A program made the translations under genes and the position numbers. From contig OY725488.1 in assembly GCA_963281255.1 (NCBI GenBank), positions 10,203,524 to 10,267,523 of the forward strand: DNA of 64,000 nt. Direction: 5' to 3'. Shown here piece by piece: positions 1,046 to 54,516 of the stretch (positions are counted from its first letter, which is position 1; every line of letters starts with the position of its first letter). This stretch comes from Aphrocallistes beatrix. Its lineage: Eukaryota; Porifera; Hexactinellida; Sceptrulophora; Aphrocallistidae. Below the pieces are notes generated by a model. That model had not been told where the DNA came from. It searched no databases and saw nothing but the letters and a program-made list of their open reading frames with translations.

Positions 1046-2383
1046 CTACGGGCGTTCAATAAGTTCTAGGCCCTACCTTCTTATTATGTCTGTAGTGCAA
1101 TTGAATCCAAGTATTTGCATTAATAATGAACCTTAGACGATTTTCTATTCAGATCTACTTCATTTCAATGCCTACTATATTTAGTTTCCAAATTATAGCC
1201 TATTCTATTTATCCTGTTTTGACCATCTTTGTTTTTTCCAACGAAAAATGGCATCCAATTTGAAACTCGAGCAACGTGCTTCTATCAAAATTCGCACGCT
1301 TCTTGGTATTGGTCCAAAAGACATTCTAATAGACTTTGAAATAGTTTATAGAGATGCTAGCCTTTCATATATCACTGTGAAGGAGTGGGCCAAACGCTTT
1401 CGTGAGGGACAGGAGTCGATAGACGATGACTATCGGAGCGGGCGCCCCAAATCCGCCGTCACCAGTGGGAATACCTTGGAAATTGGATGGATGGTGGAAG
1501 AAGACCCCCATATCACTGTTGACGAGTTAGCTATGCATGTGGGGATTTCAACGGGAGCTGCTCATGCCATCCTTATCGATGAACTGAATGTTACGAAGGT
1601 TTGTTCCAGGTGGATCCCGCATTCACTCACAAAGGCCCAAAAAGATCGTCGGGTTATGTGTGCACAAAAGTTACTTTCCGAGTACCAGGATGCTGATCCA
1701 CGAAGGTTATCTGAAATCATACCGGTGATGAGACATGGATACGATATAATGAACCACAATCCAAGGAAAGAAAAAAAGTTTGGGTGCTTAAGGGAGAGCG
1801 GCCTCCAGTTAACCCGAGGCCAGATTTCAGAGATCAGAAGGTCCTATACTCAATTTTCTTTGATGCACATGGTCCAGTTGCCCAGATAATTATTCCCAAA
1901 GGAAGCACAATCACAGGGGACTTTTACGTCAATAGTTGCTTATCAGAGGTTGAAAAACATTATTGGGAGCGGAGACCAAAGTCAGGTACACGGGGCCTGA
2001 GATTATTGCACGATAATGCACGGCCGCATAAGACAAAGCTGGTCAAGGAAGAATTGGATAGAATGAGAGTCATTGAGCTAGATCATCCAGCCTACTCACC
2101 TGATCTAGCTCCCTGTGACTTCTGGCTCTTTGCAAAGTTAAAGAAAGACCTTGCAGGGAAACATTTTCAGAGCAGGATCGACCTAGGAAATGCTGTTTGG
2201 AGATCCCTAAAAGCCATTCCACCCGAAGACTATAAAAATGTATTTTTCGAATGGTTGACTCGTCTAGAACGTGTTGTAGATTGTAAGGGTGATTATTTCG
2301 AGAAAATGTGAAAATTATAGCTTGATATTCTGAATAGTTTCAAAATTATAGGGTAGGGCCGAGAACTTATTGAACACCCGTAG
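1046..2383 (+). mobile_element. mariner DNA transposon with 32-bp TIRs and TA duplication
   Basis: The element is 1,338 bp long and bounded by TA on both sides (1044-1045 and 2384-2385). The left inverted repeat starts CTACGGGCGTTCAATAAG (1046-1077). The right one (2352-2383) is its complement with two mismatches. It carries one transposase reading frame broken once by a frameshift. Size, TA target and the DD34D transposase place it in the Tc1/mariner superfamily, mariner branch. The matching ends suggest a fairly recent insertion. Confidence 0.93.
1248..2311 (+). pseudogene. mariner transposase (DD34D), one frameshift
   Basis: Two overlapping frames make up one mariner transposase. The first (from ATG 1248) holds the N-terminal helix-turn-helix half, ending in the WIPHSLTKAQKDRR and LLSEYQ segment. 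The second frame supplies TGDETW with the first catalytic Asp (codon at 1727), then LLHDNARPHKT with the second Asp and YSPDLAPCDFWLF with the third. There are exactly 34 residues between the second and third Asp, the mariner spacing. The frame changes by one base near 1718-1720, just before TGDETW, so as written the protein loses its catalytic core. Only one defect is visible, which fits a young copy. An assembly error at this spot is also possible. Confidence 0.9.
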
Positions 2384-3727: not shown

Positions 3728-4932
3728 TCACAAACGAGAGAATAGTTTCAATATTGTTCCTCTGATCTGTTGAACAGTGACAATATCTCGCAATTCACTC
3801 AAACATATTCCAAATAATGCAGGAGAAGATCCAATTTCAGTTCCTTTATCACCGAACTGAGTAAGTAGCTCCCCATCATTTGAAAATATCTTCACTTTAG
3901 AGTCTCCACAGTCTGTTACTAAGATATTCTGTTGCTGATCTAGACAGAAACAATAAGCATTGTTAATGCTATCTTTCTTAACAACACATCTTGTCAGAAT
4001 GCCTTTTCTAGAAAATGATTGAATAGGAAATTCTGTATTGAATAGCAAAATGTAAAATAATTCTTGAGATAGAGAGATATCTCTGATTTCAGTATCTTGT
4101 TTACAGAATTCAGTCTTGAGAGATATTCTCGTTTCCTCATACAATTCTGGAGTTAACACTTTTAGATTCATTCCCTTTTAGAATGTTCAGTTTCCTCAAG
4201 GGATTTATTCAATTTCAGAATTGCTCTGTCACATTGTACGTAAATTGATTGGTTGCTCAATAGAATATTTTGTGGATTTTTCATTTTGTCATCTTTCACA
4301 GATCTGATCCATTTTCCTTTTATAGAAAAAATCTGAATTCTGTGATTCCCACTATCAGCTATATAAATATTCTTATCTATAGGGTTAATCGCTATACCCC
4401 ATGGAAAATATAGTTGATTATCTTCACTTCCTGCCACGCACCCACTCCATTTTAGTTGAAACCGAGTATTTTCATCATAAACAAGAATCTGTTCATCGCA
4501 ACGACACATTCTATTTATACAATCTTCCAATTCATCTACTCTCCATGTTAGCTTCACATTAGGAATATCAAAATCCATTTCTCTTTTAACTGAATTGAGT
4601 TTCTCTGAAATATTGAATAATGGGCCACTCTTTGGCTTCAATTCTTTGAATATTTGCTCCATTTCTTTCGCCTTTGTTTCGAGGACTCCAACTTTAGTCT
4701 GAATGTTAGTATTTTTATTGATTTTGGCATTCACCTTTTTCCAAATAGTGTCCAATACTCGGATTATTGCTTCTTCTTTATATTCGATAAGACTTCTCAT
4801 TTCTCTGCTGACTTTTCTTACTTCCAACTTCTTCCTTTCAATCATTTCTCTAAATGAGTTCATCCTACTCTGGAGTTTGTTACTTACTCCGGATGAGCTA
4901 ACAGGACCAGATCCTGGATCTGCTGTTGCCAT
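3728..4932 (-). pseudogene. NHL family A copy 1, internally deleted
   Basis: This copy reads from MATADPGSGPVSSSGVSNK (ATG at 4932) through a coiled coil (about residues 15-115), the DIPNVKLTWRVDELEDCINR linker and the first NHL blades, to a stop at 4168. The rest of the propeller continues in another frame from 4171 to 3728. Compared with the intact copy at 49122-50393, the segment encoding SYDFPLSGICTDNIHIYVG is missing at the join, a deletion of about 80 bp that also shifts the frame. The two pieces overlap by only 4 bases, so an intron is unlikely. The rest of the C-terminus (CLDQQQNILVTDCGDSKVKI) is well preserved, so inactivation looks recent. NHL propellers bind RNA or protein in known proteins; the role in this family is unknown. 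Confidence 0.8.
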
Positions 4933-24563: not shown

Positions 24564-25940
24564 TCAAAATGTGCCTCCTGCTCGATGAGCAGCAGCTATA
24601 AATTCTAACGAATTGACATATTTTGGTGAAAGAAGCGACCTTCGTGAGGTTAATATCATTCCGGTGTGTGAAAAGTCACGTTCGGATTGCGCGGAAGTGG
24701 CCGGACAGCATAAAACATGTCGAGCCAGTTTTCCCAAGATGGGAAAGCTGTGTTGGACTGTGGCCCAATAGGTCAGGGGATTTTCTTCATCATAATCTGA
24801 TGCAACTCCACCATTGATATATATGTCATACTCTTGCTGCAAGTTGAGCGTTGTATCCCCAAAGTGCATTACAGGCTGGATTTTGTCCCTCATAGTACCA
24901 AAAAATGATTTTCCTTTTTTTTGAGGTGGTTCTTCTGTTTCTGCGTCGGTAATTAATGGGAGTGGAGATGCTGTTTCACTGCTGGTTTGTGCGAGTGTCT
25001 CAAGCCATCCAGGGAGGTTTTTCAGTAGATTTCTTTTGAACTTCCTGTCCGCTGGAGTTGAGTCAGGGAGAAAGCTGAGCGATTTGAAAGCAGGGTCAAA
25101 TATCGTAGCTATCCAGTGGAATTGTGTGATTGAGCTATATAACTTCTCGTCCAGGAGAGAATGGATATTTTGCTTCAGAGTTGCGATCTCAAGACTGTCC
25201 AGATCTTCGTGGATGGGCATAGCGGAGAGCTTATAATATGACGGGATTACAAGATTTATTGTTGGACGCGTGTTAAACTGTAGGTTCTCAAAGACACAAT
25301 TAAGCACTTCCGTCACATCTCGGATTTTCTCGTTTAGCTCTTTGTCGACAGCAGCCAGTAGAGGTAATTTAACCCTCTCAGTTAACTTCTCCGAGAGTTT
25401 GGTATAGCTCTCGTGGATGCTGTGCGCACGATGGTAAATAGAAGTCCATGGGTGGGTGTTACCTCCATGCTTAATTGAGACAGGAAGTGTTTCTTGTATT
25501 CCTGTAGCTTGCTTGACATATTTACAGAGATTTGCGACTGCGTCTTCATATTGTTTCACTTCGGGAACCTGACGCTGGGTTTCCTTGTAGGCGTCTGCGA
25601 AAACTGTGTGTATGCGATGACATATACAGTCAAGCCTGGGAGAATCTCACAATCCAGAGACCATGTTGGAGCCTTTGTCAGTAACAACAGGTGCAGAAAA
25701 GCTTATCAGGCCGTACTCCTCTGTTATTTGTTTGAAGTGTCTCAAAATATTGTCACCTGTATGGGAGTCGGTCCCGAAGTGTTCCACCGCTAAGAGACAG
25801 TGCTTCAATGTGAAATCCTTACTCACCCAAAATGCGTGCACGTCGAGGTAGCTCAATTTACGGAAATTGTCAGTCCACATATCGGTGGTGAGAGAAACTG
25901 CTGAAGAACAAATCGGTTCATGCACTGACTGGTATATCAA
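24564..25940 (-). pseudogene. hAT transposase, one in-frame stop, 5' truncated
   Basis: One continuous minus-strand frame from 25940 to 24564 is interrupted by a single TGA (about 25649-25647) after TDKGSNMVSGL. The upstream part has SLTTDMWTDNFRKLSYL with the first catalytic Asp and VVTDKGSNM with the second. The downstream part has LDCICHRIHTVF (the conserved CxxH region), then the C-terminal dimerisation block PATSAQSERDFSHTGMI and RRSLLSPKYVNSLEF. This is the layout of ZBED-type hAT transposases. The N-terminal BED finger is absent: at about 25928 the sequence changes to a mariner fragment on the other strand. The stop could be a single CGA-to-TGA change. Confidence 0.85.
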
Positions 25941-26329: not shown

Positions 26330-26808
26330 CACTGAGCGGACAAAAGTATTTCAACACTTGATTCTTTCCCATACAAATAATACTAAATCGGAGTATTTCA
26401 TGAAGGGCAATATGTTCAAATTCAAAGAGATACTAAAAATCTGATTTCAGATTCGAAATCTACACATTCGAATTAGTCATAGTTGAACATAACCAATAAA
26501 TTATCCAATTCAATGAACAATCTTATCAGCCTGAGCCACCATAGGTAATTCATTGCCATCATGTATAGTGGTCAAAATGGGTGTATGTGGCATAAAGTGG
26601 CACTGAATGATAATTACAAAAAGTTAGGAATGAATGATTAATTAGAAAAATTAACCTGTGACTAATTTGAATGCGTATTATTCGAATCTGGAATCCGATT
26701 AGCTGTATCCCATACCGTTTAGAACTAACCCTCTTCATGAATAGACCCATTTTAGTATTATTTGTATGGGAAAGAATCAAGTGTTGAAATACTTTTGTCC
26801 GCTTAGTG
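26330..26808. mobile_element. 479-bp Tc1/mariner-type MITE, copy 2
   Basis: TA flanks at 26328-26329 and 26809-26810. The ends are CACTGAGCGGACAAAAGTAT and its complement, with about 60 bp of near-perfect inverted repeat on each side. Length and interior match the copy at 11921-12399. Confidence 0.9.
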
Positions 26809-27580
26809 TATGAGAAAACCTTCAGACTGATCTTATACCTAAGATGAAGCTATTGATAGCTAGATTTGTGTAAAATCTTGATGTCAAAAGTTCCATGCTT
26901 TTCATTTTTGGTTTACTCAAAACAAGCTCGCTTCGCTTGCTTGCACTGCGTTGCTGGCGGACACTTTGTGTCAGCCTGAGGCGCCTGAGGTAACATTGAT
27001 TAATTATAGGGGAGATAACATCTCTAAAAACGTCTGTTCTACTGTCATACTCAATATCGCACAAAAAGTAACCAAATTTGTCAAATTTTAAAGTTTTGAA
27101 GCGTAATGATGACGTCATAACAGAGTGATGAGTCATTATTTTTGATGATAGTTGTATCATACATATATGAGTGATGTTAATATACACATTCTATTAAAAT
27201 TTCAGCCCTCTAGCACTTAAAATACTGAGTTATGGTCAAAAACTGAAATTTCTAATTCTAAAAAAGGTGACAATGACGTCATAATTCCATGATGATATAT
27301 GTAGATACACTAATAGTTTTAATAATAAGGATGCTCCCATTTACGTATATCTCGCAATGTTATTATGCTTTGCTACCTGTTTAGTTAAAACAATATGTTG
27401 CCTTGACTGGTCGATGTCAATAGCTACTTTGATAAAAAATAGAGAAAACAGTAACGAAATATAACATTATAAAGGTCTTACTGAGTCTATAAGCAAAAAC
27501 AGAGAAAATACGAAGTAAGATCAATGATTATAAAACACAATAAGACGATCTTTAAGATACGTATCTCCACGTTTAAGCAC
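26809..27580. other. Intergenic repeats downstream of the chimeric gene
   Basis: A reverse-oriented GC-rich block lies at 26925-26993 (CTCGCTTCGCTTGCTTGCAC). Two copies of the palindrome TGACGTCATAA (about 27110 and 27274) lie in otherwise AT-rich sequence and may mark a small duplicated unit. No gene is seen. Confidence 0.4.
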
Positions 27581-29655
27581 TCAATACAGACTGTTATTCC
27601 CGAAACAAACTCTCGAGCCATCCCTATCCCCAAAACCACTTCTCGAAGTATCCCTATCCTCAAAACCACTTCTCGAAGTATCCCTATCCCCAAAACCACT
27701 TCTCGAAGTATTCTTATCCCCAAAACCACCTCTCGAGGCATCTCTATCCCCAAAACCACTTCTCGAGGCATCTCTATCCCCAAAACCACTTCTCGAAGTA
27801 TCCCTATCCCCAAAACCACTTCTCGAGGTATCTCTACCCCCGAAACCACTTCTCGAAGTATCTCTATCCCCAAAACCACCTCTCGAGGTATCTCTATCCC
27901 CAAAACCACCTCTCGAGGTATCTCTATCCTCGAAACCACTTCTCGAAGTATCCCTATCCCCAAAACCACTTATCGAGGTATCTCTACCCCCGAAACCACT
28001 TCTCGAAGTATCTCTATCCCCAAAACCACCTCTCGAGGTATCTCTATCCCCAAAACCACTTCTCGAGGTATCTCTATCCCCGAAACCACCTCCCGACCAA
28101 TACCTACTTCCGAAACCACCTCTTGAGCCATTCCAAATTCCAAATCGTCCCCAGTCCTCCTTATCACTATCGATTCTCGATTTAATTGTTCTCTCAGGGC
28201 ATTTGTCCTCCCATTCTTCATCTCTCTTTTTAGCATCTGATTTTGTCCTCTTATCTTCAGACCTTGAAAATGATAATTATTGATCAATTCAGACACAGCT
28301 TAGACAAAGCAAACCAATATTCTGACATCTCTCAACATATGAGGTATACACAGGGGCGGTCTCAAGAATTTTCCAAATCGGAGCGAGGCGAGGCCAAAGA
28401 AAAAAAATCCGGGACCACTCCTGGGTATACGTATAAAAGGCAGCGAGAGATTAGGTAAATGACCATAATATATATCATTGAACGGGAATCATTGCACTAA
28501 TTACATACTTTTAACTCAAAAATGATATTTGATAAAAAAGTTTCGAGTATCAGTAATATATCCAAAGAATTTAAGTGATTGAATTAGAAACTTTCATGTG
28601 CAAAGTAGTCAGTATTTAATCAATTTCTTATCAATCCGTATACTGTGACCCCGGGGAATTCTAGACTTGCAGCTGAAGTCAAAACATCCTTGTGGGTCGA
28701 GTAGAGTGACGAGCAGATCAGAGTTGAATTATTAAATCGTAACTCTTTTTAATACAATTAATGATTAGGTTGAAATATTAATCTTACTCTCTTTCTTCCG
28801 TTTCCAGTTTGCGTTTCGGCTCTTCATTGTCCTCGTCTCTTTCCTTGCTGGGTGCAACTTTAGATTCTCCTTGTCTAGAAACAGAATCAAACAAGTGAAT
28901 AAAAAATTTAATTAAAAGTTTAAAGCAATTAGGAAACTGTGTTCATCACAATTGCTCAATTAACTAAAGGTTTAAAGACAATCTAGGACTTCAATCACCG
29001 AATTGAACTGATCCAGTAAAACCAGTCTAACTATACACATTTTTTATCAGTAAACCGTTCCGGAGGCTTCAGTCTTCCTATTTTAGAATGTGCTACATAC
29101 CGAGGAAATATAATACAAAGTGTGACATTTAACATAAGTACTATAGCCTAAGTCATTGACACAGACTGGAATAGACAAATACTAAATTGTTAAAACTTAC
29201 GATTTATCGCTATCACCCTGACGACACATTTTATTTATGCAATCTTTCAATTTATTCACTCTCCAAGTTAACTTCACATTAGGAATATCAATATCCATTT
29301 CTCTTTTTATTGAGTCGATTGAATCTGAAATGTCAATTTTAGGTTTTGATGTTGGATTCAATTTATTAAATAAGTTTTCCATTTCAATCTTGTGGGCTTT
29401 AATCTTTACAATTTCTTTTTCAGTTTCAGTTTTCTTCTTCTCCATTTTAGTATTCACTTCTTCCCAAATAGTATTCAATTCTTGGATTATTGCTTCTTCT
29501 TTCTTTTCGATAAGACTTCTCATTTCTTTGCTGACTCTTCTTACTTCCGACTTCTTCATTTCAATCACTTCTCTAAACGAGTTCATTTTATTCTGGAGTT
29601 TGTTACTCACTCCGAATAAACTACCAGGACCAGATCCTGGATCTGCTGTTGCCAT
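27581..29655 (-). CDS. Chimeric coiled-coil protein with GFGDRDTSR decapeptide array
   Basis: Three exons, 29655-29201, 28874-28788 and 28262-27581, joined by GTAAGT and GTAAGA donors and TTTCTAG and TTTTCAAG acceptors in matching phase, give 407 residues. Exon 1 is the NHL family A head (MATADPGSGPGSLFGVSNKL, coiled coil, then WRVNKLKDCINKMCR), but family similarity stops after MCR. Exon 2 adds a charged linker with a possible nuclear signal (EEPKRKLE). Exon 3 adds more charged sequence (DKRTKSDAKKRDEEW), the transition GSRGGFGSRYWSGGG, and 16 exact-period decapeptides of type [SG]GFGDRDTSR (27611-28090), then a short tail (VCFGNNSLY). Base differences among units fall mostly at third positions in this frame (TTT/TTC, AGA/AGG, ACC/ACT), supporting it over the other frames. 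The NHL propeller is replaced by a low-complexity FG/RG-rich tail like those of RNA-granule proteins; that role is inference. Confidence 0.8.
27611..28090 (-). repeat. Coding minisatellite, 16 x 30 bp
   Basis: Sixteen head-to-tail 30-bp units with no length variation lie inside the last exon of the chimeric gene. Units differ at one to four positions. The pattern of shared variants (for example GGT for GAT in two units, GAG for GGG in two units) suggests duplication of blocks of several units. Confidence 0.95.
28350..28430 (-). repeat. Interspersed repeat shared with 40-115
   Basis: GGCCAAAGAAAAAAAATCCG and TTTTCCAAATCGGAGCGAGG match the reverse complement of the sequence at the left edge of the window. 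It lies in intron 2 of the chimeric gene. Confidence 0.7.
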
Positions 29656-30424
29656 TATAGACTTGCTATTATTTTAATTAAAACCAGATCACAAATAATT
29701 ACAATTTATTCAATAAGAAAATAATACAATTTACTGTAATGCATATTCTATAGTCATACATCACAAAGAAATTCAATATCTTAGTGACTGCACTCCATTA
29801 TTCTTAGCTTCACATTGATATAACAGTGGATGTACTATACCATAGCTTTGCTATCTACTATATACAGAATTACTTGATCAGCTATCGATAACAAAAAGTG
29901 GATTTATTTCTGATAGAGAATGCTAGTAGTCGCTAAAGTACTTTCTTCTTGAATTATCCTATTACGAGGGAATAATGATAATATCTTGATACGTGTTATA
30001 AAACATTTAATATTGGATGCATAGCAACACCTTTAATATATTTATGAGAGTGTTTAGTAATCAAAACAAACTCATACTTGAATAGCTAAATTATTTTAAA
30101 CTCATATACGAGAAAAAATGTAAGAATTCTCTTTAGGATGGTTACTTTTCAAAATTGAATTCATAAAGTAGAGTGAAAGCATTCGTGAACCCAATTATAT
30201 AAGGCCTGAATACCAAAGTCTGAGTAGTATTTTGCTGAACTTGGATACTAAACATTCACAAATGGCAGTAGCTGGGTTGGCTAACGGAACAAATGTGTGA
30301 ACAAGATATTCTTATTCAGCAAATTTCAATTATGTCTGTTTAGTTCAATTCCACTAACATGTATTCTCATATGCATCTGTTTCACGGTCAAAATTTAATT
30401 GAATTTGAAAATATTATCTAAATA
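29656..30424. other. Intergenic upstream of the chimeric gene
   Basis: The first 180 bp are the 5' flank of the chimeric gene. The segment at about 29765-29830 (AATATCTTAGTGACTGCACT) recurs at 40705-40780 next to the truncated NHL copy 4. No other feature is supported. Confidence 0.4.
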
Positions 30425-30612
30425 CAGTCGACTCCGCTTAATAGGGCCACTGTTTAATCGGGTCAGCCGCTTAATCGGGCCACTTTTGGCAGGACCGGAA
30501 TAGCTCTCACACATAGAAGCTAATACAAAATATTTTCGGTTAATAGGGTCCTCCGCTTAATCGGGGCAAAATGTCCTCTGACCGATGTGGCCCTATTAAG
30601 CGGAGTCGACTG
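30425..30612. mobile_element. 188-bp pogo/Tigger-like MITE, complete
   Basis: TA on both sides; ends CAGTCGACTCCGCTTAATAG and its complement with about 27 bp of perfect inverted repeat. The interior again contains CCGCTTAATCGGG-type motifs. It is the best-preserved member here; other copies are at 15640, 18748-19919 and, decayed, 14515. Confidence 0.9.
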
Positions 30613-32557
30613 TAATATGTAAGTTGAGGCTTCACCTCGAATAATCATGAGTCAAGGAATGAATATAGAAAATTAATTTTAAACAAATAATTTTAAACAA
30701 ATGAAAATGAAAATAATCTAAAATTGGTATTCAAAGTTTTGTGATAAATCGTTATGAATCATTGACTGACTCCCCAATTCCAAATTGAATCGTCACTGAA
30801 TATTTGATACAATCCTTGTAAAATCTCCATCGAGAATGGTCTTGAATGCGAGCAATTTTCAGGAAATTATATAAATAGTCTTGACAACAGCCTTATCCTG
30901 GATAGATTTCTTACAAACATCTTCTTGCTTCAGTAAACCGTCACGTAGCTTGGCAACTGCTTCCCCCTCAATTATCCAGTCATTTGTCCATACTCCACCT
31001 TGTGACATGATTCATAGTGCCATATCCCTTCATCACTCCTAATACCTCTTAGCATATAAGGCAAATATGGTTTTCATATAATTAAACAAACAAATACTTT
31101 AAGATCCATTCTTCTTGAAAATGTCGAGGAATTACCGATTCGGATGATTAAATTATACTGCATTAAAAGATAAGGAGATAGAAGATTATTTAAATTATTC
31201 AAGTAATTATTATGACAAGCGCGCTTCGCTTGCTTGCGCTGCGCGGCTTGCGGACACTGCGTGTCCGCAGATTTACCCAGTGGGTGCTTGGGAATATACG
31301 TCACTTTCTTGTTTTATACTAAGTACGCTCGATTATCATTTGTCTACGGTTACATTAATGGAATCGAAACTGTAGCAGAAATTTTGTTTCGTGATAAATA
31401 TAATTTACTTCGTATTAAGTCAACTAATCCTGAATGTAAGCTCAATTTGAATACACAAAGTTCACATTGCTAAAGATTATTATACTTAAATAATCAATTC
31501 CAGTCCATGTCGTTAAAAGTTATTTTATGATCGAATTGATTGATCGTAGCATATAACACACTTTAATTGTTGTTAACAATCAAATTATAGACTCAAAATA
31601 GCAGTATTCAATCATTTATATGAAATAGAATCGTGTGAATGGCATTATAAAAGGCTGATATTTGATTGGTTCACATAAACCAATGAATTTCAATCACAAA
31701 TAGTTATTTTGATTGTATGCATAAGTCACTACGATTTTATTCCAATGTATTTGCATTATAAAATAATCGAATTTGATTGGTCAGCACATTTTGTCACCTA
31801 TCTCGGCGAGGTGTGAACATTTCGCTTAGATCTTCGAACTTAATCCTAGATTCATCATTTGACACCTACATGCCAATTTTCGTATCTCTACGACTTACCA
31901 ATTCTTCAATCAATTCGGACAAACAAACAAAAAAAAAAAAAATCCTAGAGTTTTAATATATAAGATATTTATGTTTAAGGCTTAGAAATATGAATAATAT
32001 TGACAGCTTATTGTAGTTTCGTACAATGATTTATATTGTGGGGAGCAAGGCCGGATTCGGTTAACCGGCAAACCGCCATCAATCTCCGTTAACGGTTAAG
32101 GAAATCTTAGTTCGGTTAGCCGATCTCCTTTATTTGCTAAATATTTACACTAATTTCATTGTTTTGGAGAGATTCAAGAAATTTTTTTTACAAAAAATTG
32201 ATAATACAAGAATTTCAATTCTTCTAACCATATAATAGATTTCGAGACCACTAAAATTCTTAAATAAACAAATATCAGGTTAAAGATTAATCCAAAAATC
32301 CATTATTTCAACCAGTTAATATTGACATCGGTTAACCGGTTAACCGCCCTGAAGGAAACAAAATAACCAACCCTAAAATCGGTTAACCAACCCCATCCCA
32401 GAGGAGTGAAACATATATAGTGTATATAAATGGTATAAAAAATACTAATTGCTTTAGATTCAAACCCAAGACTTTCTAAATATTCACATACTAATAACTC
32501 ATAATATATTCTCAACGAGTTAGCACAGTAAAACACTTCAGTTAATATTCCATCTGT
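30613..32557. other. Intergenic, mixed repeats
   Basis: A small minus-strand open frame at about 31011-30862 starts MSQGGVWTNDWIIEGEAVAK and then AKLRDGLLKQEDVCKKS; it looks like coding sequence but I cannot assign it, and it may be an exon relic. A reverse-oriented GC-rich block is at 31217-31290. The repeat shared with 6285-6425 is at 31825-31965. At 32045-32400 an element carries clustered GGTTAACCGG palindromes in both orientations. Confidence 0.45.
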
Positions 32558-35500
32558 TCACGTGGAGATGTTCTGATAGGTCACATTCTGTCTATACTCC
32601 GAGATGAGCTGGTAGCAGTGAGCATACTGCGCCTAAACGCAAGAAAGATAAATTCAGCGAATATACTATTCGAATCAGTTTCATCCAGACTACAATTGCT
32701 TACCAAACTAATTCAGTGGGATTAGATAATGCAATTTAGTACAAGCCTGGCTTTTTTGCAATACTATGCTCCTGAACTAGCAAACTAGCTACAGAGCTGT
32801 ATTTAGATTGTATTAATTGGTTAAGGTTGGAATAATTGCGTAGTGATTTATCCTCACCTTACTGCACACCATCCGACGTCGCTGTATCCTGACGTTCTTG
32901 ACTAGCTGCATAAGATTCACAGCTCCACCCTTCCTCATCATATTCACAGCACAACACAGCACTATAAACACTCCGGTCTTCCCCACAGCATCAGAACAGT
33001 GGACTACGATAGGGCTGGTATTCTGGTGCGTGACCTGTTCTGCTAGCTTGACGACCGGTAGCAAGTGCGAGGGGGTACCGGTATCCTCCCACTCCATCAG
33101 GAGGTAGTGGGTCAGTGTGCGAGATTGCGACACAGAACTGTCGCTCAGTTCCAGCGTCTGTTTAATCAGATTTCCGATTCTCTCTGAGCTCACCGTCTCA
33201 ACTGAGAACCGGTCTATCTTCGTCTGCAGTCCTTCTTCCGGCCAGTAGCAGCAGCAGGAAGAAGCCCCGGACACAATGTCCTCCCAGCCCCTCACCGTCT
33301 CCAACGCCACCACCGTGGTGGCTGCGCTCTGCCAGAGCATCTTTAGGAATGCAGCTGAGGTGTGGTTGTGTGGGTTTACAGTTGCTATGAACTGAGTGTC
33401 CACACCTCTGATGCTGACATAGGACGCATTAATGTAGTCTCCCTTGTGCCAGCTGTCTGCCTCTAGCACCACTCTGTTCCTGTCGTAAGGGAGAGAAGTG
33501 CTGTGCGTGTTCTTGGATTGGTTTTCTGGTCGAATCGCGTCAGATACAAGCGCCATTGAACCCACTGAATCGAGGAATTCTAGATATGCGAATTCTTCCT
33601 CTATCCTAGCAACCGTAGCTTCACTATCAGGATAGGAATGCAACATTTTCACACCTCTGTTTCCTAGAGACATCTCCAGGAGACACAGGTATGCGAACTT
33701 ATACTGCTCCACCGTCTGGACCATGTAGGATCTATGCTCCCTTATGCTCCTCACAATCTCAGGCAGGCACACTTGCACCTCAGATTCCAGCAGCTTCATA
33801 GCTATGTACAGCAAGATGAACACTCCCGTCCTACCAACTCCTGACGTGCACACGACACAGATAGGAGTGTTTGTGCTGTGTTGCTCCTTCACACCTCTCA
33901 GCATCTCAACCATCCCACTAGTATCCTCGGGGACTGTGCCATCTCTCCACCCCGTGTAGTGGAACTGAGTTATGGTTGAGGTGTTTCCTGATTGGGTGAC
34001 AACTAACTCTCTTCTAAACCACTCCCCTTCACACACCTCTTCTCCTAGCTGGATTTCTACCCCTGACACCTCTATGCAACGATCCTGACACTCTGGCCAG
34101 TACAGTTCACACCTCCTCCGCCCATTCTCCACCGGATCTGTCAGCTGCACTACACAGCTGACATTGCACTGCAGTAACATGTGCCACATATCAGCCACTG
34201 TGTCCACTAGAGGTCCCTGAGTGGCGATGAACACGTTGGGTTCTTGCCCTAATGGTACAAAGGACGCGTTGATATACTCACAGCCACTACTCAATGTTAT
34301 TCTTGTGTGGTCGTAAGGAAGGATGTCCTGGTATCTATTCTTAGCAGCATTCCTAGGTAGACGGGCGGTATTCATGGTGTGTGTAGATGTGTGGGGAATT
34401 GATCCAAACTCTCCTTTCAATTTCGAATCTTTGTCAGCTGTTAAACTCTCAATTTCACACTTCAAAAAGGTGAATGAATTGTCGGTATCCAAAATCTCAT
34501 AGTATCGTCCCTTATCTACTGTCACTCCCTGATACGTGTCTAGCTCATAGTAGAGTCCTGTCTGTGCTGCTGGGACTGATCCTAGCATATTATTAGTATT
34601 AGTGGGGTCAGTAGTGAGTTTAGTGTGATGCTGCTTTTTCCGCTTTAAATAACTTATTACACAGATGAATGGATGAGGTTCATAACTGAGACTATGCAGC
34701 AGATACTTGTAATCACTACAATGATAGTTACCAGGGTAGCCGTGGATATGCCAGTAGAAGAGTTTGAGGCTATTAGTGGAGGATCAGTTACTGTTGACAT
34801 TCCAATTGGTTTAGAACTTGAGGTTGGGAATTCAGATGTCAGATCTCGTATTGATGTTTCAGATTTGGCTGGAATAGTCGTAGACTCTGTCATGTGTGAG
34901 GGTATCGTTAGCATTGGTACTGTTGGCATTATTGACTCTATTGGCACTGTAGTCATTATAGGTACTGTTAGCACACTTGACACTGTTGGCATTATAGACT
35001 CTATTGGTACCGTTGATATTATAGGTACTGTTGGCACACTTGGTACTGTTGGCATTATGGACTCTATTGACACTGTAGTCATTATAGGTACTGTTAGCAC
35101 ACTTGACACTGTTGGCATTATAGACTCTATTGGTACCGTTGATATTATTGGTGCTATAGGAACTGTTGGAACTGTTGGAGCTGCTGAAGCTTCTAGAACT
35201 CCAACTACTCCAACACTTATTTCTGGAATAGCAGTCAGATTTAACTCAAGACTGAACACGACCATATTTTCTAACACTCTGCGACAAGAATATGCTCCAC
35301 TGTGTTGTGACGTCACTGAAGGAATGGTGATAACAGGAAATGAAGATGAAGTGTCTCCATTTGGAAGTATCCATCTCCCGTCTCCTGTCTTAGCACTACA
35401 AGTTAAAATAAAGTTAGCTGTGTTTTGTACCACATTTAGTGTTGTATTGCTTGTGTATTCTCCGTCGCTTAGTACACTTCCTTCCACACTGATATGGCCT

Positions 35501-36322
35501 CCTTCTACAATCAAACACAGCTGTAACTAATCACACTCTTAAATTGCGTTAATTAAATACTAAACATTGCATCAATATATACCTTTTATATCTACTAATA
35601 TTGCTCCAACAAAAGCATTCGTTATAACACCTTTCCTGAAACAATAAAGTAAATACTCTCCTGTACTCTTCTCGTTCTTGTATAAATCGTATATATTAAT
35701 TGGATTAGAATATCTTAGCAAAGAAGAAGAATCAATCCATTCCTTCTCTGTATTGTCGTTAGGATCTAAGCAGTTGAATTTTCTGTTGTAAGGATCTACG
35801 TCCAGTGTGTATGTGAAATCATTTGCTGTTGTTGTACTGAATGTGACACCGATAGTCCCTAAACAAATACATTATATTTGCAATATGTTGATCATTCTAT
35901 CACTATTTTGTATATACAAATATTCACACCAAATATCATATAACGGCATATGAAGGAGCAAATTAATTCCAATTTACGATTCTACATTCATTTGAATATC
36001 TTTCAAATGCATATCTATTTTAACGAGGAAGTGATATAATCAGTTCGTGTATAAATCTACATCATAGAGTACTACAGTGATTGTGATAGCACCAATTAGC
36101 ATAGGTTGACCTCGTGAATAATTAAGCAGGAGTTTGAATAATTACAATGCTAATTTGAGACCAGAAATACATATCTGTTACAATTGCATGCTGTTCTTGC
36201 TCGAAATTGTTGAGGAAGAGCCTAGTCTTGGTATTGTGTGACTTACCTGTTCTACACATCTCCATCATAGATATCAATATGCAAACAGAGACGGATAAGT
36301 GCTGTCTGATTCTCAATTCCAT
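32558..36322 (-). CDS. Receptor tyrosine phosphatase with Ig domain and two PTP domains
   Basis: Exons: 36322-36247 (signal peptide MELRIRQHLSVSVCILISMM), 35858-35583 (extracellular), 35504 to about 34660 (Ig-like domain FILTC...SGAYSC, a Thr/Ser/Pro-rich stalk of 20-residue repeats TVPIESIMPTVSSVLTVPIM, then TM TLVTIIVVITSICCIVSV), about 34588-32858 (phosphatase domains) and 32632-32558 (final AQYAHCYQLISEYRQN). Splice phases agree except between the TM and phosphatase parts, where either a short intron or a frameshift near 34560-34740 must be assumed. D1 has KNRY, WRD in place of WPD, and VVCTSGVGRTG: the Cys and Arg are kept but the His before the Cys is Val. D2 has VHCSDAVGKTG (Arg to Lys) and WED, so it is probably inactive, as D2 often is. 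It should remove phosphate from tyrosine at the plasma membrane. Confidence 0.85.
34914..35170 (-). repeat. Coding 60-bp repeats of the phosphatase stalk
   Basis: The units encode TVPIESIMPTVSSVLTVPIM and close variants, about four and a half copies with 60-bp and 120-bp periodicity. Rich in Thr, Ser and Pro, they would form an extended, probably O-glycosylated stalk. Confidence 0.8.
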
Positions 36323-37525: not shown

Positions 37526-38802
37526 TCAAAAAATAGGATAGAAAAGTTGAAGTTTACATTGGTTCTTCGCAAAATCTGCTGTAATGATACAGTCATGTTG
37601 AAAAAGAGAAATACCAGTAAGACTAGAGAACTGTCCTTTCTCAGATCCTTTCTCCCCGAACTGAGTGAGTAGCTTCCCTTCATTGGAAAATATCTTCACT
37701 TTAGAGTCTCCATTGTCTGCTACTAAGATGTTTTGTTGCTGATCTAGACAGAAACAAAAAGCAGAGTTAATGCTATATTTCTTAACAACACATCTTGTCA
37801 GAATGCCTTCCTTAGAAAATGCTTGAATTGGAAAATCTGTTTGGAATAGCAAAATATAAAACAATTCTTGAGATAGAGATATATCTCTGATTTCAGTATG
37901 GTGGTTATACTTGTAGAAAGATTGAGAGATATTCTATTTTCTTCAATCAAATTCAGAGTTAACACTATTAGATTCATTCCCTTCGATTCACCAACATAAA
38001 TATGAACATTATCTGCACAGATACCTCCGAGAGGAAAATCACAAGATTTAGAATTTTCTTTCTTTTCGCTAGATTCGTTCAATTTCAGAATTGTTATATT
38101 GCATTGTACGTAAATTGATTGGTTGTGAAATATAATATTTTCGGGATTTTTCATTTCGTCATCTTTCACAGATCTGATCCATTCTCCTTCTCTAGAGAAA
38201 ATCTGAACTCTATCATTCCACTTGTCAGCTATATAAAATTTCTTATTCATAGGGTTACTCGCTATACTCCATGGATTCCAGAGTTGATTGTCTGCTTTAC
38301 CTTCCTCGCACTTACCCCATTCTAGTTGATACTGAGTATCCTCATTATAAACTAGAATATTTTGATCACAGCGACACATTTGATTTATGCAATCTTTCAA
38401 TTCATCAACTTTCCAAATTAACTTCACATTAGGAATATCAATATCCATTTCGCTTTTCACAGAATCGATCGAATCTGAAATATCAATCTTAGGTTTTGAT
38501 GTTGGATTCAATTCTTTGAACTTTTTCTCCATTTCTACCTTGTAGGCTTCAATATCTTCAATTACTTTCTGGGTTTTAATTTCCTTCTCCATTCTCGAGC
38601 TGACTTCTTCCAAAATAGTATCCAAATCTTGGATTATTTCTTCTTCTTTCTTTTCGATTAGACTTCTCATTTCTTTGCTGACTCTTCTTACTTCCAACTT
38701 CTTCCTTTCAATCACTTCTCTAAACGAGTTCACTTTACTCTGGAGTTTGTTACTCACTCCGAATAAACTAACAGGACCAGATCCTGTTTCTGCTGTTGCC
38801 AT
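37526..38802 (-). pseudogene. NHL family A copy 3, frameshifted
   Basis: The first frame (38802-37798) encodes the head MATAETGSGPVSLFGVSNKL, coiled coil, linker and blades up to LIEENRISLNLSTS, where it departs from the family. The second frame (from about 37915 to 37526) resumes with LFYILLFQTDFPIQAFSKEG and NILVADNGDSKVKI. The shift lies at about 37885-37915. The C-terminus also differs from the intact copies after GQFSSLTGISL. Probably a recently dead copy. Confidence 0.8.
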
Positions 38803-39840: not shown

Positions 39841-40705
39841 TCACAAACGAGAGAATCCACTCAATAAATAGAAATCACTCGTCTGAACAGTATAAATATC
39901 TCCTAATTCACTCAAAGATATTCCGTAGAGTGCAGAGAACTGTCCCTTCTCAGATCCTTTCTCACCGAACTGAGTGAGTAGCTCCCCTTCTCTGGAAAAA
40001 ATCTTTACTTTAGAGTCTCCACCGTCTGCTACTAAGATGTTGTGTCGATAATCTAGACAGAAACAAAAAGCACGGTTAATGCCTCCTTTCGAAACAACGC
40101 ATCTTATTAGAATGCCTTCTCTAGAAAATGCTTGAATTGGAAATTCGGTATTGAATAGTAAAATGTAAAACAATTCTTGAGATAGAGATATATCGAAGAT
40201 TTTAGTATCTTGTTGACAGAACTCAGTCTTGAAGGATATTCTGTTTTTTTCAATTAAATCTAGAGTTAACACTATTAGATTCATTCCCTCCAATTGACCG
40301 ACATAAATATGAATATAATCCGCACAGATACAGCTGAGATCAAAATCATAAGATTTAGACTTTTCCTTCTTCTCAGTAAATTCATTCAATTTCAGAATTG
40401 CTCTATCACATTCCACGTAAATTGATTGGTTGTGAAATATTTTGTGGCTTTTTCATTTCGTCATCCTTTACATATCTGATCCAATATCCTTCACTAGAGA
40501 AAATCTGAATTATGTGATTCAATTCGTCAGCTACATAAATATTATCATTCATAGTCGCAATACCTTGTGGATAACAGAGTTGGTTGTCTTTGAATCCTCT
40601 GTCGTACTTACTCCATTTCAGTCGATACCGAGAATTTTCATTATAAACTAGAATCTGTTGCGCTCAAAACGGCACATTATAATTATGCAATCTTTCAATT
40701 CTTCC
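39841..40705 (-). pseudogene. NHL family A copy 4, lacks the coiled-coil head
   Basis: The 191-residue frame (40416-39841) carries the last blades, LSQELFYILLFNTEFPIQAF and DYRHNILVADGGDSKVKI. Upstream to 40705 the earlier blades are present but broken. At 40705, within the KDCI linker region, the sequence jumps to DNA that in the chimeric gene lies upstream of the ATG (29765-29830), so head and coiled coil were deleted. Confidence 0.8.
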
Positions 40706-40835
40706 AAGATATTCTATATCCTAGTGACTACACTTCAACCTTATTTTTACGTTCACATTGATACTACAATGGAAGATGTATGTTGTAATTACCCTGGCTT
40801 TATTTATATTTAGGAGTTATTAGATTGGCTACGAA

Positions 40836-46189: not shown

Positions 46190-47394
46190 AACAGTATAAA
46201 TATCTCCTAATTCACTCAAAGATATTCCATAGAGTGCCGAGAACTGTCCTTTCTCACCGAACTGAGTAGCTCCCCTTCATTGAAAATATCTTTACTTTAG
46301 TGTCTCCACCGTCTGCTACTAAGATGTTGTGTCGATAATCTAGACAGAAACAAAAAGCACGGTTAATGAAATCTTTCGAAACAACGCATCTTATCAGAAT
46401 GCCTTCTCCAGAAAATGCTTGAATTGGAAATTCGGTATTGAATAGTAAAATGTAAAACAATTCTTGAGATAGAGATATATCGAAGATTTTAGTATCTTGT
46501 TCACAGAATTCAGTCTTGAGAGATATTCTGTTTTCTTCAATTAAATCTAGAGTTAACACTATTAGATTCATTCCGTCCAATTGATTGACATAAATATGAA
46601 TAGAATCCGCACAGATACAGCTGAGATAAAAATCATAAGATTTAGACTTTTCTTTCGTCTCAGTGGATTTATTTAATTTCAGAATTGCTCTACTACATTG
46701 CACGTAAATTGATTGGTTGTGAAATAGAATATTGTGGCTTTTTTATTTCGTCATCCTTTACATATCTGATCCAATATCCTTCACTAGAGAAAATCTGAAC
46801 TCTGTGATTCAATTCGTCAGCTACATAAATATTCTTATTCATAGTCGCAATACCATGTGGATAACAGAGTTGGTTGTCTCCTCTTCCTCTGTCGCACTTA
46901 CTCTATTTTAGTTGATACGGAGAATTTTCATTATAAACTAGAATCTGTTGCTCAAAACGACACATTCTAATTATGCAATTTTTCAATTCTTCCACTCTCC
47001 ACTTCAACCTCACTTTAGGAATATCAATATCCATTTCTGTTTTCAATGAATCGATCGAATCTGATATTTCGATTTTAGGCTTCTTGGGTGTTGGATTCAA
47101 TATTTTGGATTTTCTTAACATTTCGGTCTTGTGAGCCCTGATCTTCTCATTTTCTTTCTGAGCTTCAGTTTTCTTCTTCTCCATTTCAGCAATCACTTCT
47201 TCCCAAATAGCATCCAATGCTCGTACAATAGCTTCTTCTTTATTTTTGATTAGACTTCTCATTTCTTTGCAGACTCTTCTTACTTCCAACTTCTTCCTTT
47301 CGATCACTTCTCTAAACGAGTTCACTTTACTCTGGAGTTTGTCACTCACTCCGAATAAACTAACAGGACCAGATCCTGAATCTGCTGTTGCCAT
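46190..47394 (-). pseudogene. NHL family A copy 6, broken
   Basis: The head and coiled coil are intact (47394-46903, MATADSGSGPVSLFGVSDKL) but end in a stop after ENSPYQLK. The first blade is out of frame, and the remaining blades (46703-46254) end early after TKVKIFSMKGSYSVR. It is close to copy 4 (both have DYRHNILVADGG) and shares its 3' flank, so the two arose by duplication. Confidence 0.8.
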
Positions 47395-51068: not shown

Positions 51069-54000
51069 CATAGCCTACTGTAATAATGCCTCACAGTAAA
51101 AGTACCAGGGATGCAGTAATAGCCGATATTGTGATGTAAAGCATAATATTCTACACTAACAAAATTTGTTCTAGTACACACAAATTCGACTAATTCTGCG
51201 ATCCCTTTTTAAATTTGTGAATTTGAATAACAAATTTGGAATATGATAGTTAAATTTAATATAATCACATACAATCTTCTACGTACAAACAACAAAGAAA
51301 TACTGAATAACTAATACAAATATCTGTTCTCTCATTCACACAGTCTAGATCTTGGTTGCTCTGACAAACTTATACGTATTGGCGTGTCTATTAGTCTACT
51401 CTTCTACTCGCTTGCTGACTCACTTCCTGACGGGTAATGAAACAAAACCTACATAAGTAAATGAAATATAAGTATTGGTACGTAAATAAAATATTTAACA
51501 AAATAACAATAAGAATTCAGTTCAATTTACGCTTCTCAAATCCCTTCGATATTACTAGTGAATTATAATTCTTAATCTTATTGGCAAGAAAGCAGTTGGC
51601 AGCAGTAAAGATAATCTTCTCCAAAATATTCCACTTTGATACTTCGCAACTAGGACAATTCAACCTCCAACTGTCAGCATCAGTCTCTTCCACAAAAATT
51701 AAAGCCAATTCAACTAGAATTTTCCTAGATGGACATTCTACAAGCACAGCTAATAATTCATCATTCTTTTCAATACTAACAAAAATCTTCCATAATGTTG
51801 CTACAGCAAGAAGAACTGGTTCTGATGAATATTTAAGTCCACCACGATCTACTAACTGGATAAGCTTAAACTCATCAGGTGAATCAAAATCAAACATAAC
51901 TTCTTTATCAATTGTCAAAGAGCTGATACAAATACGACATGATTGAGAATGTTTCAAGTATTTAAAAACAGAATATCCTGCAATGAAAGCAAGGGATTGA
52001 ACTATTTGGGGAGTACATTCTATATATGAAAGATCACCGATTCCTTCAAGAAAAGGATCTAATATAGTATTTCCATCTTCATCACTTGTGAGTGAAGGCG
52101 ATGAAAATGATTTTATAAAGTTCTGCAACGATTCAAACGATGTGCTATTTTGATTAGGGAACATTTTCAAAATGCTAGAGAGTTTCAGACGTCGCTCGGT
52201 CTCAAGAACTTGGAGGTAGGATATGTGGTAATTAGAACCTGACATTAAACGATGCAGTCCAAAATGATGTTCTAATGGATCTGTCTGTAAAAAAGATGAT
52301 AACAAGAAGGAAAAACCACAGTGTTGAATTAAATGATTAGTGATTTGTCGTAAAGCAATACAAGCGTGTCGAAAACTTCTGTAGGTTTGCTTACTCAATT
52401 TTCCTGGTTTACCTGGTAAAGAGTGCCAAGCATCCAACCAAAATACGATACGAGTGAGAAATGAAAATCGTTCATCATTCAAAGTTAAAGGGCTCGAGAA
52501 GCTATCGTTTAGACGAATGCCTTTAAAAGGAGTGTTGATGTTAAATAATTTCCAAAGAGAAATTAGAACCCTGACTAGATCAGATGTACTATTACGAAAC
52601 TCAGGGCAACGTAACTCATTTTGAATCTCAAGTGCAGCTTGCGTTAGTTCGTTGACTACCTTCAGAACCAATTTTACATTTTGCCGCTCAATACTCGAAG
52701 GGTAACAGGATTTCACAGTCAAGTGAGGGGCGAGTTTGGCTAAACTATTTCGTTCTGATTTATAAAGAAGATGTATATCTTGAAAGCACGCTGAATGGTT
52801 CTGAAGAGGATATTTAGTAAAATCAACCTGAAAATGATCAAAATTGGGAAAAAGAAATGTTTTGTCAAAATCTTTTTGATTCAACCAATTATTACGAATA
52901 CACTTCAAAATGTGAACAAAATCGAAAGTAAGGAATAAAACTCTATTGACATCGGAAGGATGGGGTACTTGAATATCTAAATCTTTTCAGCTGAGATAGA
53001 TGGGCATGGAATTAGGCGAGAAATACAGGACCATTTCTTATGCAAACTAGATACCATAATGGAAAAGACAGTTTTGGTGGGATCTTCAGGATTTAAATTT
53101 GGCGCAATAATCTTTCCACCTTTATATGAAATATCAGATTTCACATGAATCTCGTCCATTTGGAGGATGACATTTTTTTCTTGTGGACTGAAGCATGAAG
53201 TAGCTTTGGAAAGATAGGCACAGGAATCATTTTCAAGACCAAAAGAAGAATATAAATTATCTAACGTATGAACGTGTGGTAAAGTGAGACAGTCTAGATT
53301 TTGGAGATAAGAATAACAAGATGGTGAAATGAGATGAGTTTTAATGGCTAAAATTTGTGTGATTAAATTATACCGTCGCCTGTTTTTGGGAATGAACAAA
53401 TTATCCAATTGACATAGGATAAATTGGAGCTTGGCTAAATCAGGACAATTATCTACTGATCCTTCCTGATTTGCAAAATCATTAACAACCTCCTTAATGT
53501 GATTTTTAGCTCGTGGAATGTGTGTTTACTTTTAGCTTGAATTGATGCAGCATACTTCAAATAAATTTTATTCAAAAGATACTCAATTTGTCTTACATCA
53601 TTAATTGTATACATTGATAGGGAGAATGACTGTCCTTGCAGCCAGGCGGATGCAACTAAAGATGAATTTATTTCTAAATACAGATTCACGGAAATGCTTC
53701 GTTCGACCATATTGGGATGAATAAATGTAATAGTAGTATCGTCACGGTACCATACTAGCCAATTATTTTGTAAATTAATAAGAAATAACTTATCTTTCAG
53801 ATCTCGCAGGTTGGTAATCATATACTTCTTTTTCTCCTCACTGTCAGATAGCAAGCTCAGCTGAATGGTTTGATTAATAAATTCTTCTTCCTTCGATTCG
53901 AACGAGAGGCGAGTCCGTTTGGTTGTAGAAGTTGATGAATAGTAAAAAGGACATCCAGGTAGAAAACAAGGGATAGCACCATCTCTCAACTTAGGTTTGG

Positions 54001-54516
54001 TTCGAGGTACATCAGTGAAGGTCCCGTCTCCATTGGGAACCTTGTGTGTCTTGATTATATCGTCGTCTCGAAAATGCTTGGCGCATACGTTAACAACTTT
54101 GAGGGTGTCTATATCATCACGATGTAGAGCACTGATCCACGCCTGTCTGAGTTCCGGCGGCTTGTCTGGCATTCTGAATATTGGAACTCGATCATCCTGA
54201 TCATAGTTACTCGTACATCCAGGAGCCGAGCAGCTACTAGGCATGATTAGCTGATAGACTGATACTAATTATTAAATTGATATAAAATGAATGAAAATGT
54301 ATGTTGGCACAATGGTTATTTAAAGAACTGATTAAATGACAACAAATAAATTTCAATTATTCTTATTTACCTTCCTACTCAAATGTAAACAATGAGGTTA
54401 TTTAATAACTAATATTTATTTATAAATATTGTGGTTACCTAAATATTACCGGCTATTAACGCATCCCTAGTCTCAAAATCCTAGCTTATTGTTAGGCATT
54501 ATTACAGTAGGCTATG
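51069..54516 (-). mobile_element. P-element/THAP9-like DNA transposon
   Basis: About 3,448 bp. The ends are inverted for more than 70 bp with gaps: outermost CATAGCCTACTGTAATAATG, then a subterminal AGGGATGC...TAATAGCCG block. The flanks TGTTAGAT on the left and GGTTAGAT on the right (depending on the exact right edge) give an 8-bp target duplication with one mismatch, as expected for the P superfamily. One transposase gene lies inside on the minus strand. Complete ends and only two visible frame breaks suggest a young insertion. Confidence 0.85.
51517..54244 (-). pseudogene. P/THAP9-like transposase, two frameshifts
   Basis: Three frames follow in order. 54244-53453 starts with a THAP zinc finger (CSAPGCTSNYDQDDRVPIF, then CAKHFRDDDI). 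The next frame (about 53530-52977) has QLDNLFIPKNRRR and the catalytic-region phrase QMDEIHVKSDISYKGGKI. The last (open from about 52985 to 51517) has LDIQVPHPSDVNRVLF, FVHILKCIRNNWLNQ and the C-terminal TDPLEHHFGLHRLMSGSN. Each neighbouring pair stays colinear with the family when the frame shifts by one base, near 53490-53530 and near 52983. No intron-like sites are seen at either place. Otherwise full length. Confidence 0.85.

What the first reader, a model, noticed from the sequence alone, without database searches (positions are those of the whole stretch)
27581..29655. A new chimeric gene: NHL-family coiled-coil head spliced to a 16-unit GFGDRDTSR array
Seen: family A similarity ends exactly after MCR, a GTAAGT donor follows within 25 bp, and two further exons join in perfect phase to give 407 residues. 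The last exon holds 16 exact 30-bp units that read [SG]GFGDRDTSR only in the spliced frame; unit differences are mainly synonymous in that frame. Known: FG/RGG-type low-complexity tails occur in Vasa/DDX4, nucleoporins and RNA-granule proteins. Inferred: a duplicated NHL gene lost its propeller and captured a disordered tail, giving an oligomerising, possibly condensate-forming protein.
Basis: partly seen in the sequence, partly recalled or inferred. Interest (0 to 1): 0.87.

Follow-up and report, generated by a model that had tools for sequence, protein, structure and literature searches.

The report
Coiled-coil gene with repeat tail
In an animal-like stretch of DNA, one copy of a family of coiled-coil/propeller genes appears to have lost its propeller and to be spliced instead to a long, disordered, repetitive tail, a plausible but unproven new gene.

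Summary
The gene model is in the sequence. A coiled-coil head (29655-29221, minus strand) is 78-87% identical in DNA to five NHL-gene copies; similarity stops at MCR, with no propeller trace beyond. Of 400 shuffles, 24 had some route, 7 a three-exon route, none as much added coding. Exon 3's non-repeat part looks coding; exon 2 less surely. The 16 units are exactly 30 bp, but their differences are not mainly synonymous: 3 of 11 distinct variants. The head is mainly one 87-residue helix, the tail predicted disordered. New: five of five other full-head copies share a 5' flank that this copy lacks; its flank matches a headless copy at 40.7 kb, supporting a partly duplicated NHL gene. A Ddx4-like condensate is weakened: charges lack blocks. 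No donor was found; no genome or transcript could be examined. Probably a young chimeric gene; possibly unexpressed.

The parts
29201..29655 (-). Exon 1: coiled-coil head of the NHL family A (145 residues, MATADPG...NKMCR) plus QGDSDK and two bases of a split codon
   Evidence: 78-87% DNA identity to five paralogous heads over 142 codons, ends at MCR; helix predicted at residues 13-99, 69 of 151 residues with pLDDT of 90 or more; whole model mean pLDDT 73.9, pTM 0.37
28875..29200 (-). Intron 1 (326 bp, phase 2), C|GTAAGT ... TTTCTAG|A
   Evidence: splice-site scores 5.1 and 5.6 bits with a recalled generic PWM; 45% purine against 65% in exon 1 and 76% in exon 2
28788..28874 (-). Exon 2: 87 bp, symmetric (phase 2-2), so it can be skipped without a frame change; charged linker
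   Evidence: codon score 12.1 bits, reached by 46 of 13515 stop-free intergenic windows and 129 of 4000 shuffles; with family A left out of training 6.9 bits, reached by 678 of 4000 shuffles
28263..28787 (-). Intron 2 (525 bp, phase 2), A|GTAAGA ... TTTTCAAG|G; holds a dispersed repeat at about 28353-28422
   Evidence: splice scores 4.9 and 5.8 bits; 81% match over 70 bp to window 37-106
27581..28262 (-). Exon 3: charged linker, RGG-like transition, 16-unit decapeptide array and TGA stop
   Evidence: predicted disordered, mean pLDDT 39.1 without an alignment
27611..28090 (-). 16 units of 30 bp, [SG]GFGDRDTSR, with a five-unit higher-order period
   Evidence: TRF 16.2 copies, 0% indels; units five apart differ by 1.73 bases on average against 3.13-3.44 at the other lags from 1 to 8
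29766..29830 (-). 5' flank shared with the headless family copy at 40706-40773
   Evidence: 79% over 68 bp, E 1e-10 within the window
27318..27323 (-). ATTAAA poly(A)-signal-like hexamer, about 258 bp after the stop codon
   Evidence: pattern only

Best explanation
A young chimeric gene. Shown in the sequence: a partial duplicate of an NHL-family gene (5' flank, ATG and 145-residue coiled-coil head) ends abruptly and is followed by unrelated sequence with two decent, in-phase introns and an RGG-like exon in which a 30-bp unit has expanded to 16 copies. Inferred: the duplication tract ended inside the gene, new 3' exons were recruited from the flanking sequence, and the array grew in place by unequal exchange or slippage in about 150-bp steps. 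Inferred mechanism of the product: the head still forms the family's coiled coil, alone or with the two intact propeller-bearing paralogues (50393, 59728), so that the protein would display several copies of a charge-balanced, F- and R-rich disordered tail in place of a propeller. It would thus act as a propeller-less partner (a modulator or scaffold) of its relatives.
For: Sharp end of homology at MCR and no propeller trace; in-phase splice chain without a rival at the chosen thresholds; purine shift at all predicted exon borders, and a GC shift for exons 2 and 3 but not exon 1; coding signal in the exon 3 non-repeat part: 23.1 bits in frame, reached by 17 of 2761 stop-free intergenic windows and by 3 of 4000 shuffles (33 of 4000 were stop-free), and a spliced-frame array score of 41.8 bits against at most 15.1 in any other open frame (30.3 against 21.9 with family A left out of training); 5' flank shared with a propeller-bearing but headless copy; helix in the head and disorder in the tail; head 62-75% identical in protein to those of its paralogues, so co-assembly is possible.
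Against: No transcript, no genome and no orthologue could be examined. The head's integrity proves little: all six heads are open, including those of copies that break later (ORF lengths from ATG 254, 334 and 163 aa in c4932, c38802 and c47394). Focal-specific changes are 1 synonymous and 8 non-synonymous, giving no sign of purifying selection (p=0.70). Unit differences show no synonymous excess. Exon 2's coding signal is only moderate and largely vanishes when family A is left out of the training (678 of 4000 shuffles reach it), and in exon 3 frame +1 also scores well (17.2 bits). The splice sites are decent, not exceptional: 5.6-7.0% of all GT or AG sites in the window score as high. 24 of 400 shuffles gave some in-phase route. 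A second, looser threshold lets four chains reach another array frame.
Confidence: 0.5

Rival explanations
1. Unexpressed partial duplicate: the head is a dead gene fragment, like several neighbours, and the array is a minisatellite that happens to lie in an open frame.
For: Of the six copies with a head, only two (50393, 59728) keep a full 423-aa frame; focal-specific changes show no constraint; no synonymous excess among units; 24 of 400 shuffles gave some in-phase splice route; the three plus-strand frames of the array are open too.
Against: 0 of 400 shuffles gave as much added coding; exon 3 non-repeat coding signal and frame preference; no indel among the 16 units.
Confidence: 0.3
2. Exons 2-3 belong to a separate, RGG-type gene with another first exon; the head lies in its 5' region and is not part of the main transcript.
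For: Nothing found after MCR is related to the NHL family; exon 3 resembles RNA-binding protein tails in composition (inference); exon 2 alone could be joined to any phase-2 exon.
Against: Among stop-to-stop ORFs of at least 40 aa on the minus strand between 28875 and 32700, none but the head exceeds 84 aa; exon 1 has a donor of the right phase 20 bases after the homology ends. Short first exons were not searched for.
Confidence: 0.15
3. The head was inserted as an isolated block into an unrelated locus, rather than being what remains of a duplicated NHL gene.
For: Five of five other full-head copies are recognised by a shared flank lying within about -30 to -190 (leave-one-out E 1e-7 to 2e-17); the focal copy is not, and shares with that profile only about the last 36 bases before its ATG (E 0.0019).
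Against: The focal flank at -111 to -175 matches that of the headless, propeller-bearing copy at 40.7 kb (E 1e-10); weak similarity to two of the five other flanks (P 0.005 and 0.015; the other three 0.185-0.26). So the flank is probably a second subtype of the family's own flank.
Confidence: 0.1
4. The protein forms Ddx4-like condensates through its FG/RG tail.
For: 18 FG, 5 RGG and 10 RSG motifs in the whole product; predicted disorder; an oligomerising head would add valency (inference).
Against: In the array charge is spread more evenly than in any of 500 shuffles and net charge per 10 residues is never beyond 1 either way; in Ddx4, removing the charge blocks abolished droplets (PMC4352761, passages read).
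Confidence: 0.15

Closest known systems
NHL / TRIM-NHL proteins (TRIM2/3/71, Brat, NHL-2)
   Same: The head's intact paralogues carry a coiled coil followed by NHL repeats (Pfam NHL E 1.4e-05 and 5.7e-13 in copies 50393 and 59728); weak TRIM_CC match of the head (E 4.4e-05 in the spliced protein, but 23.8 bits against a cut-off of 30).
   Different: No NHL repeat in this gene; no RING or B-box in the Pfam scans of the focal product and the two intact paralogues.
Ddx4/Vasa N-terminal disordered tail
   Same: Disordered, rich in FG and RG/GR pairs (Ddx4 features from PMC4352761 passages).
   Different: No helicase domain; no charge blocks; a decapeptide array of constant unit length instead of irregular motifs.
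Bacterial decapeptide repeat (Pfam PF25296; DotG/IcmE structures such as 7muc)
   Same: GF every ten residues; phmmer E 7.9e-24 for exon 3, Pfam E 1.4e-05.
   Different: Pfam scores are below the curated cut-off (25.3 and 21.8 against 45 bits); in the printed alignment the position that mostly holds leucine in the bacterial repeat holds Thr here. Judged a match of period and composition, not of descent (inference).
Chimeric genes from partial duplication with recruitment of flanking sequence
   Same: Duplicated 5' part, unrelated 3' part, new introns. A review of novel exon-intron structures in duplicates is PMC3449122 (start of abstract seen in the search listing only).
   Different: The recruited part contains an expanded 30-bp array.

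Membership tests
NHL-repeat protein family | At least one NHL repeat / six-bladed propeller | tested here: not met
   No NHL match in the 407-aa product at E up to 1; tblastn with a full paralogue (E up to 0.01) finds no propeller between 13656 and 29221.
NHL-repeat protein family | Descent of the head from a gene of that family | tested here: met
   tblastn 72% over 145 residues, E 8e-51; DNA 78-87% to five copies.
TRIM / RBCC proteins | RING and B-box ahead of the coiled coil | tested here: not met
   None in Pfam scans of the head, the spliced product or two full paralogues. ORFs upstream were not scanned.
TRIM / RBCC proteins | TRIM-type coiled coil | tested here: inconclusive
   TRIM_CC E 4.4e-05 at 23.8 bits, cut-off 30; best solved relative is TRIM45 at E 0.24; a long single helix is predicted.
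Ddx4/Vasa-like condensate tails | Disordered, with many FG/RG pairs | tested here: met
   the disorder prediction was made without an alignment, and the pairs were counted, not tested against a background.
Ddx4/Vasa-like condensate tails | Blocks of 8-10 residues of alternating net charge | tested here: not met
   Net charge per 10-aa window of the array: 0 in 101, +1 in 25, -1 in 25 of 151 windows. The linker ahead of the array was not scanned this way; its charge mixing is ordinary.
Ddx4/Vasa-like condensate tails | Phase separation in vitro or in cells | not testable with these tools
   Needs protein.
Bacterial decapeptide repeat PF25296 | Score above the curated cut-off | tested here: not met
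   25.3 bits (exon 3) and 21.8 bits (spliced protein) against 45.
Chimeric gene | Spliced transcript joining both parts | not testable with these tools
   No RNA data and no held genome.

The most novel reading that the evidence does not exclude
A recently born animal gene in which a propeller-less NHL coiled-coil head carries a skippable linker exon and an expanding decapeptide array, made as a partner that joins its propeller-bearing paralogues and exchanges their binding domain for a repetitive, evenly charged disordered tail whose length varies between individuals.
Probability: 0.2. Interest if true: 0.6.

Novelty: new variant of a known kind. Interest (0 to 1): 0.42.

Why it matters
If transcribed, it would be a clear case of a new gene caught soon after its birth: intact parental paralogues, a sharp breakpoint, recruited introns and a repeat array, all within 64 kb. 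It would allow a direct test of how a disordered repeat tail is added to an oligomerising domain.

Tried and rejected
Residual propeller homology after MCR, as a decayed ancestor: not found; anchored alignments to 5 copies (P 0.30-0.88) and local alignments of four pieces to 3 copies (P 0.14-0.95) are no better than shuffles. Selection on the array from synonymous counts: no excess in any of the six frames (P 0.57-0.88). Head-only dN/dS: pairwise NG86 omega 0.43-0.81 among all 15 pairs, not informative about the focal copy (YN00 failed for one of 15 pairs). Terminal inverted repeats around the locus: nine pairs listed in 26500-32500, none spanning the gene. Relatives elsewhere: none confirmed in viral contigs (with proteins, 18 with the repeat unit) or in genome contigs; these collections are viral or prokaryotic and the scans start from short peptide patterns, so this says little about an animal gene. 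Rfam at gathering scores and tRNA scans of the window: nothing. A sponge was suspected as source from gene content and base composition; this is recalled and untested. Paper searches: 1 paper listed of 1; 10 of 67; 15 of 29; 0; 4 of 4; 7 of 7; 10 of 38. No listed title or abstract start describes such a fusion; unlisted papers were not seen, so this is no proof of absence. Passages were read in PMC3503706, PMC4352761, PMC6351104 and PMC8242945; the first and last gave nothing used here.

Error of mine: two of nine codon-training sequences were out of frame (found). Its numbers are dropped; one search replaces them and is weaker (17 of 2761 and 46 of 13515 windows reach the observed scores, where one search had 0 and 5 of the same totals). 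In one search a ninth sequence, with an internal stop, was left out.

Full report
What is there. On the minus strand, 29655-29201 opens with MATADPGSGPGSLFGVSNKL and encodes the 145-residue head that five other copies in the window also carry (ATG at 4932, 38802, 47394, 50393, 59728). DNA identity over 142 aligned codons is 78-87%. Two of the six copies, 50393 and 59728, keep a full 423-residue frame with NHL repeats; the copies at 4932, 38802 and 47394 break after 254, 334 and 163 residues. In the focal copy the similarity stops at MCR. An alignment anchored just after it is no better than shuffled sequence for any of the five copies, and the two introns, exon 2 and the start of exon 3 show no propeller trace in the three copies tested.

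The gene model. With generic splice matrices written from memory, the four sites score 4.9-5.8 bits; 5.6-7.0% of all GT or AG sites in the window do as well. What is unusual is the combination: at thresholds set just below these scores, the only routes from the head to the array are this chain and the form that skips exon 2, and none enters either of the other two array frames. With the sequence between head and array shuffled, 24 of 400 trials gave some route to the array frame, 7 of 400 a three-exon route, and none, among routes leaving after the head, as much coding sequence. At a looser threshold (4.0/4.0) the same two chains remain in the array frame and four chains reach another frame. 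The exons are 63-76% purine, the introns 45%; GC is higher in exons 2 and 3 (42-49%) than in the introns (31-35%), but not in exon 1 (32%).

Coding signal. My first codon test was wrong because two of nine training sequences were out of frame. The corrected one gives 23.1 bits for the 57 non-repeat codons of exon 3 (17 of 2761 stop-free intergenic windows and 3 of 4000 shuffles reach it, with 33 of 4000 shuffles stop-free at all), 12.1 bits for exon 2 (46 of 13515 windows; 129 of 4000 shuffles) and 41.8 bits for the array, against at most 15.1 in any other open frame. Frame +1 of the exon 3 part scores 17.2. When family A is left out of the training, exon 3 gives 17.7 bits (7 of 4000 shuffles), exon 2 falls to 6.9 (678 of 4000) and the array to 30.3 against 21.9. 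Exon 3 is therefore likely coding; exon 2 less surely.

The array. Sixteen units of exactly 30 bp. Units five apart are the most alike (1.73 differences against 3.1-3.4 at the other lags from 1 to 8), so it probably grew in blocks of about 150 bp. The first unit (GGFGSRYWSG) follows an RGG-like stretch, so growth in place is as good an explanation as capture (inference).

Origin. In a leave-one-out profile test, five of five other full-head copies are recognised by a shared flank lying within about -30 to -190 (E 1e-7 to 2e-17); the focal copy is not, and matches a profile that includes the last 30 bases only over about its last 36 bases (E 0.0019). Its flank at 29766-29830 instead matches 40706-40773 (79%, E 1e-10), which lies ahead of a copy that has lost all but the last 13 residues of its head and still has propeller sequence by tblastn (64% and 75% identity to the 50393 copy), although a 203-residue piece of it gave no Pfam match at E up to 0.01. 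Pairwise, the focal flank is weakly similar to two of the five others (P 0.005 and 0.015) and not to three. The simplest reading is a second subtype of the family's own 5' flank, so the focal locus is what is left of an NHL gene and not a head inserted alone. The head tree places it with 38802 at weak support (55).

How it may work. The head is predicted mainly as one helix of 87 residues at high confidence; the rest of the head is modelled poorly (mean pLDDT 73.9, pTM 0.37). Its best solved relative by sequence is the TRIM45 coiled coil at E 0.24, which is weak. Exon 3 is predicted almost without structure (mean pLDDT 39.1, single sequence). I infer a coiled-coil oligomer that shows several disordered tails and may mix with its paralogues, replacing their propeller. 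NHL propellers can bind RNA, as in C. elegans NHL-2, which is also found in P granules (PMC6351104, passages); the focal product would lack that binding surface. The Ddx4 comparison is only half met: FG and RG-type pairs are many, but the charge blocks that Ddx4 needs (PMC4352761, passages) are absent from the array. The strong match of the array to bacterial DotG/IcmE chains (E 7.9e-24) reflects GF every ten residues; the cut-off of the Pfam decapeptide model is not reached, and I do not read it as kinship.

Against the reading. There is no evidence of transcription. All six heads are open whether or not the copy is broken later, so an open head is no proof. The focal head shows 1 synonymous and 8 non-synonymous private changes, no sign of constraint, though the intact copies look much the same (2 and 5 in 50393; 2 and 18 in 59728). 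No relative of head or tail was confirmed in the collections searched, which are viral or prokaryotic. No whole genome is held.

Verdict. The chimeric gene is more likely than not (about 0.5-0.6 for the gene, less for the function), the condensate idea is weakened, and the donor is unknown.

Noticed in passing
39841-40773 (-): Headless family copy: a deletion seems to join its 5' flank to the last 13 residues of the head, followed by propeller sequence in more than one frame; its flank is the only one found in the window that matches the focal gene's beyond the last 50 or so bases.
   Followed up: partly
34914-35178 within 34657-35526 (-): A second minisatellite (63/126-bp period) lies in an ORF with a weak immunoglobulin match, just upstream of an ORF with two protein-tyrosine phosphatase stretches (32816-34720); it may be the stalk of a receptor phosphatase.
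   Followed up: no
4177-4932, 37918-38802, 46735-47394 (-): Three NHL copies whose frame breaks after 163-334 residues, beside two intact ones: the cluster is partly decayed.
   Followed up: partly
51517-54268 (-): THAP domain (Pfam E 5.8e-14) and, in a neighbouring frame, a weak TNP-like match below its cut-off: probably a THAP-type transposon.
   Followed up: partly
1185-2311 (+): Mariner-type transposase in two overlapping frames (Transposase_1 E 4.2e-11 in the second; the name mariner is recalled).
   Followed up: partly
24564-25646 (-): hAT transposase C-terminal dimerisation region (E 5.3e-15).
   Followed up: no
30423-30614: Perfect 28-bp inverted repeat with 136 bp between the arms, with similar sequence near 19.8 kb and 15.7 kb: perhaps a small non-autonomous element upstream of the focal gene.
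   Followed up: no
28353-28422: Intron 2 holds a copy of a repeat also found at window 37-106 (81% over 70 bp).
   Followed up: no
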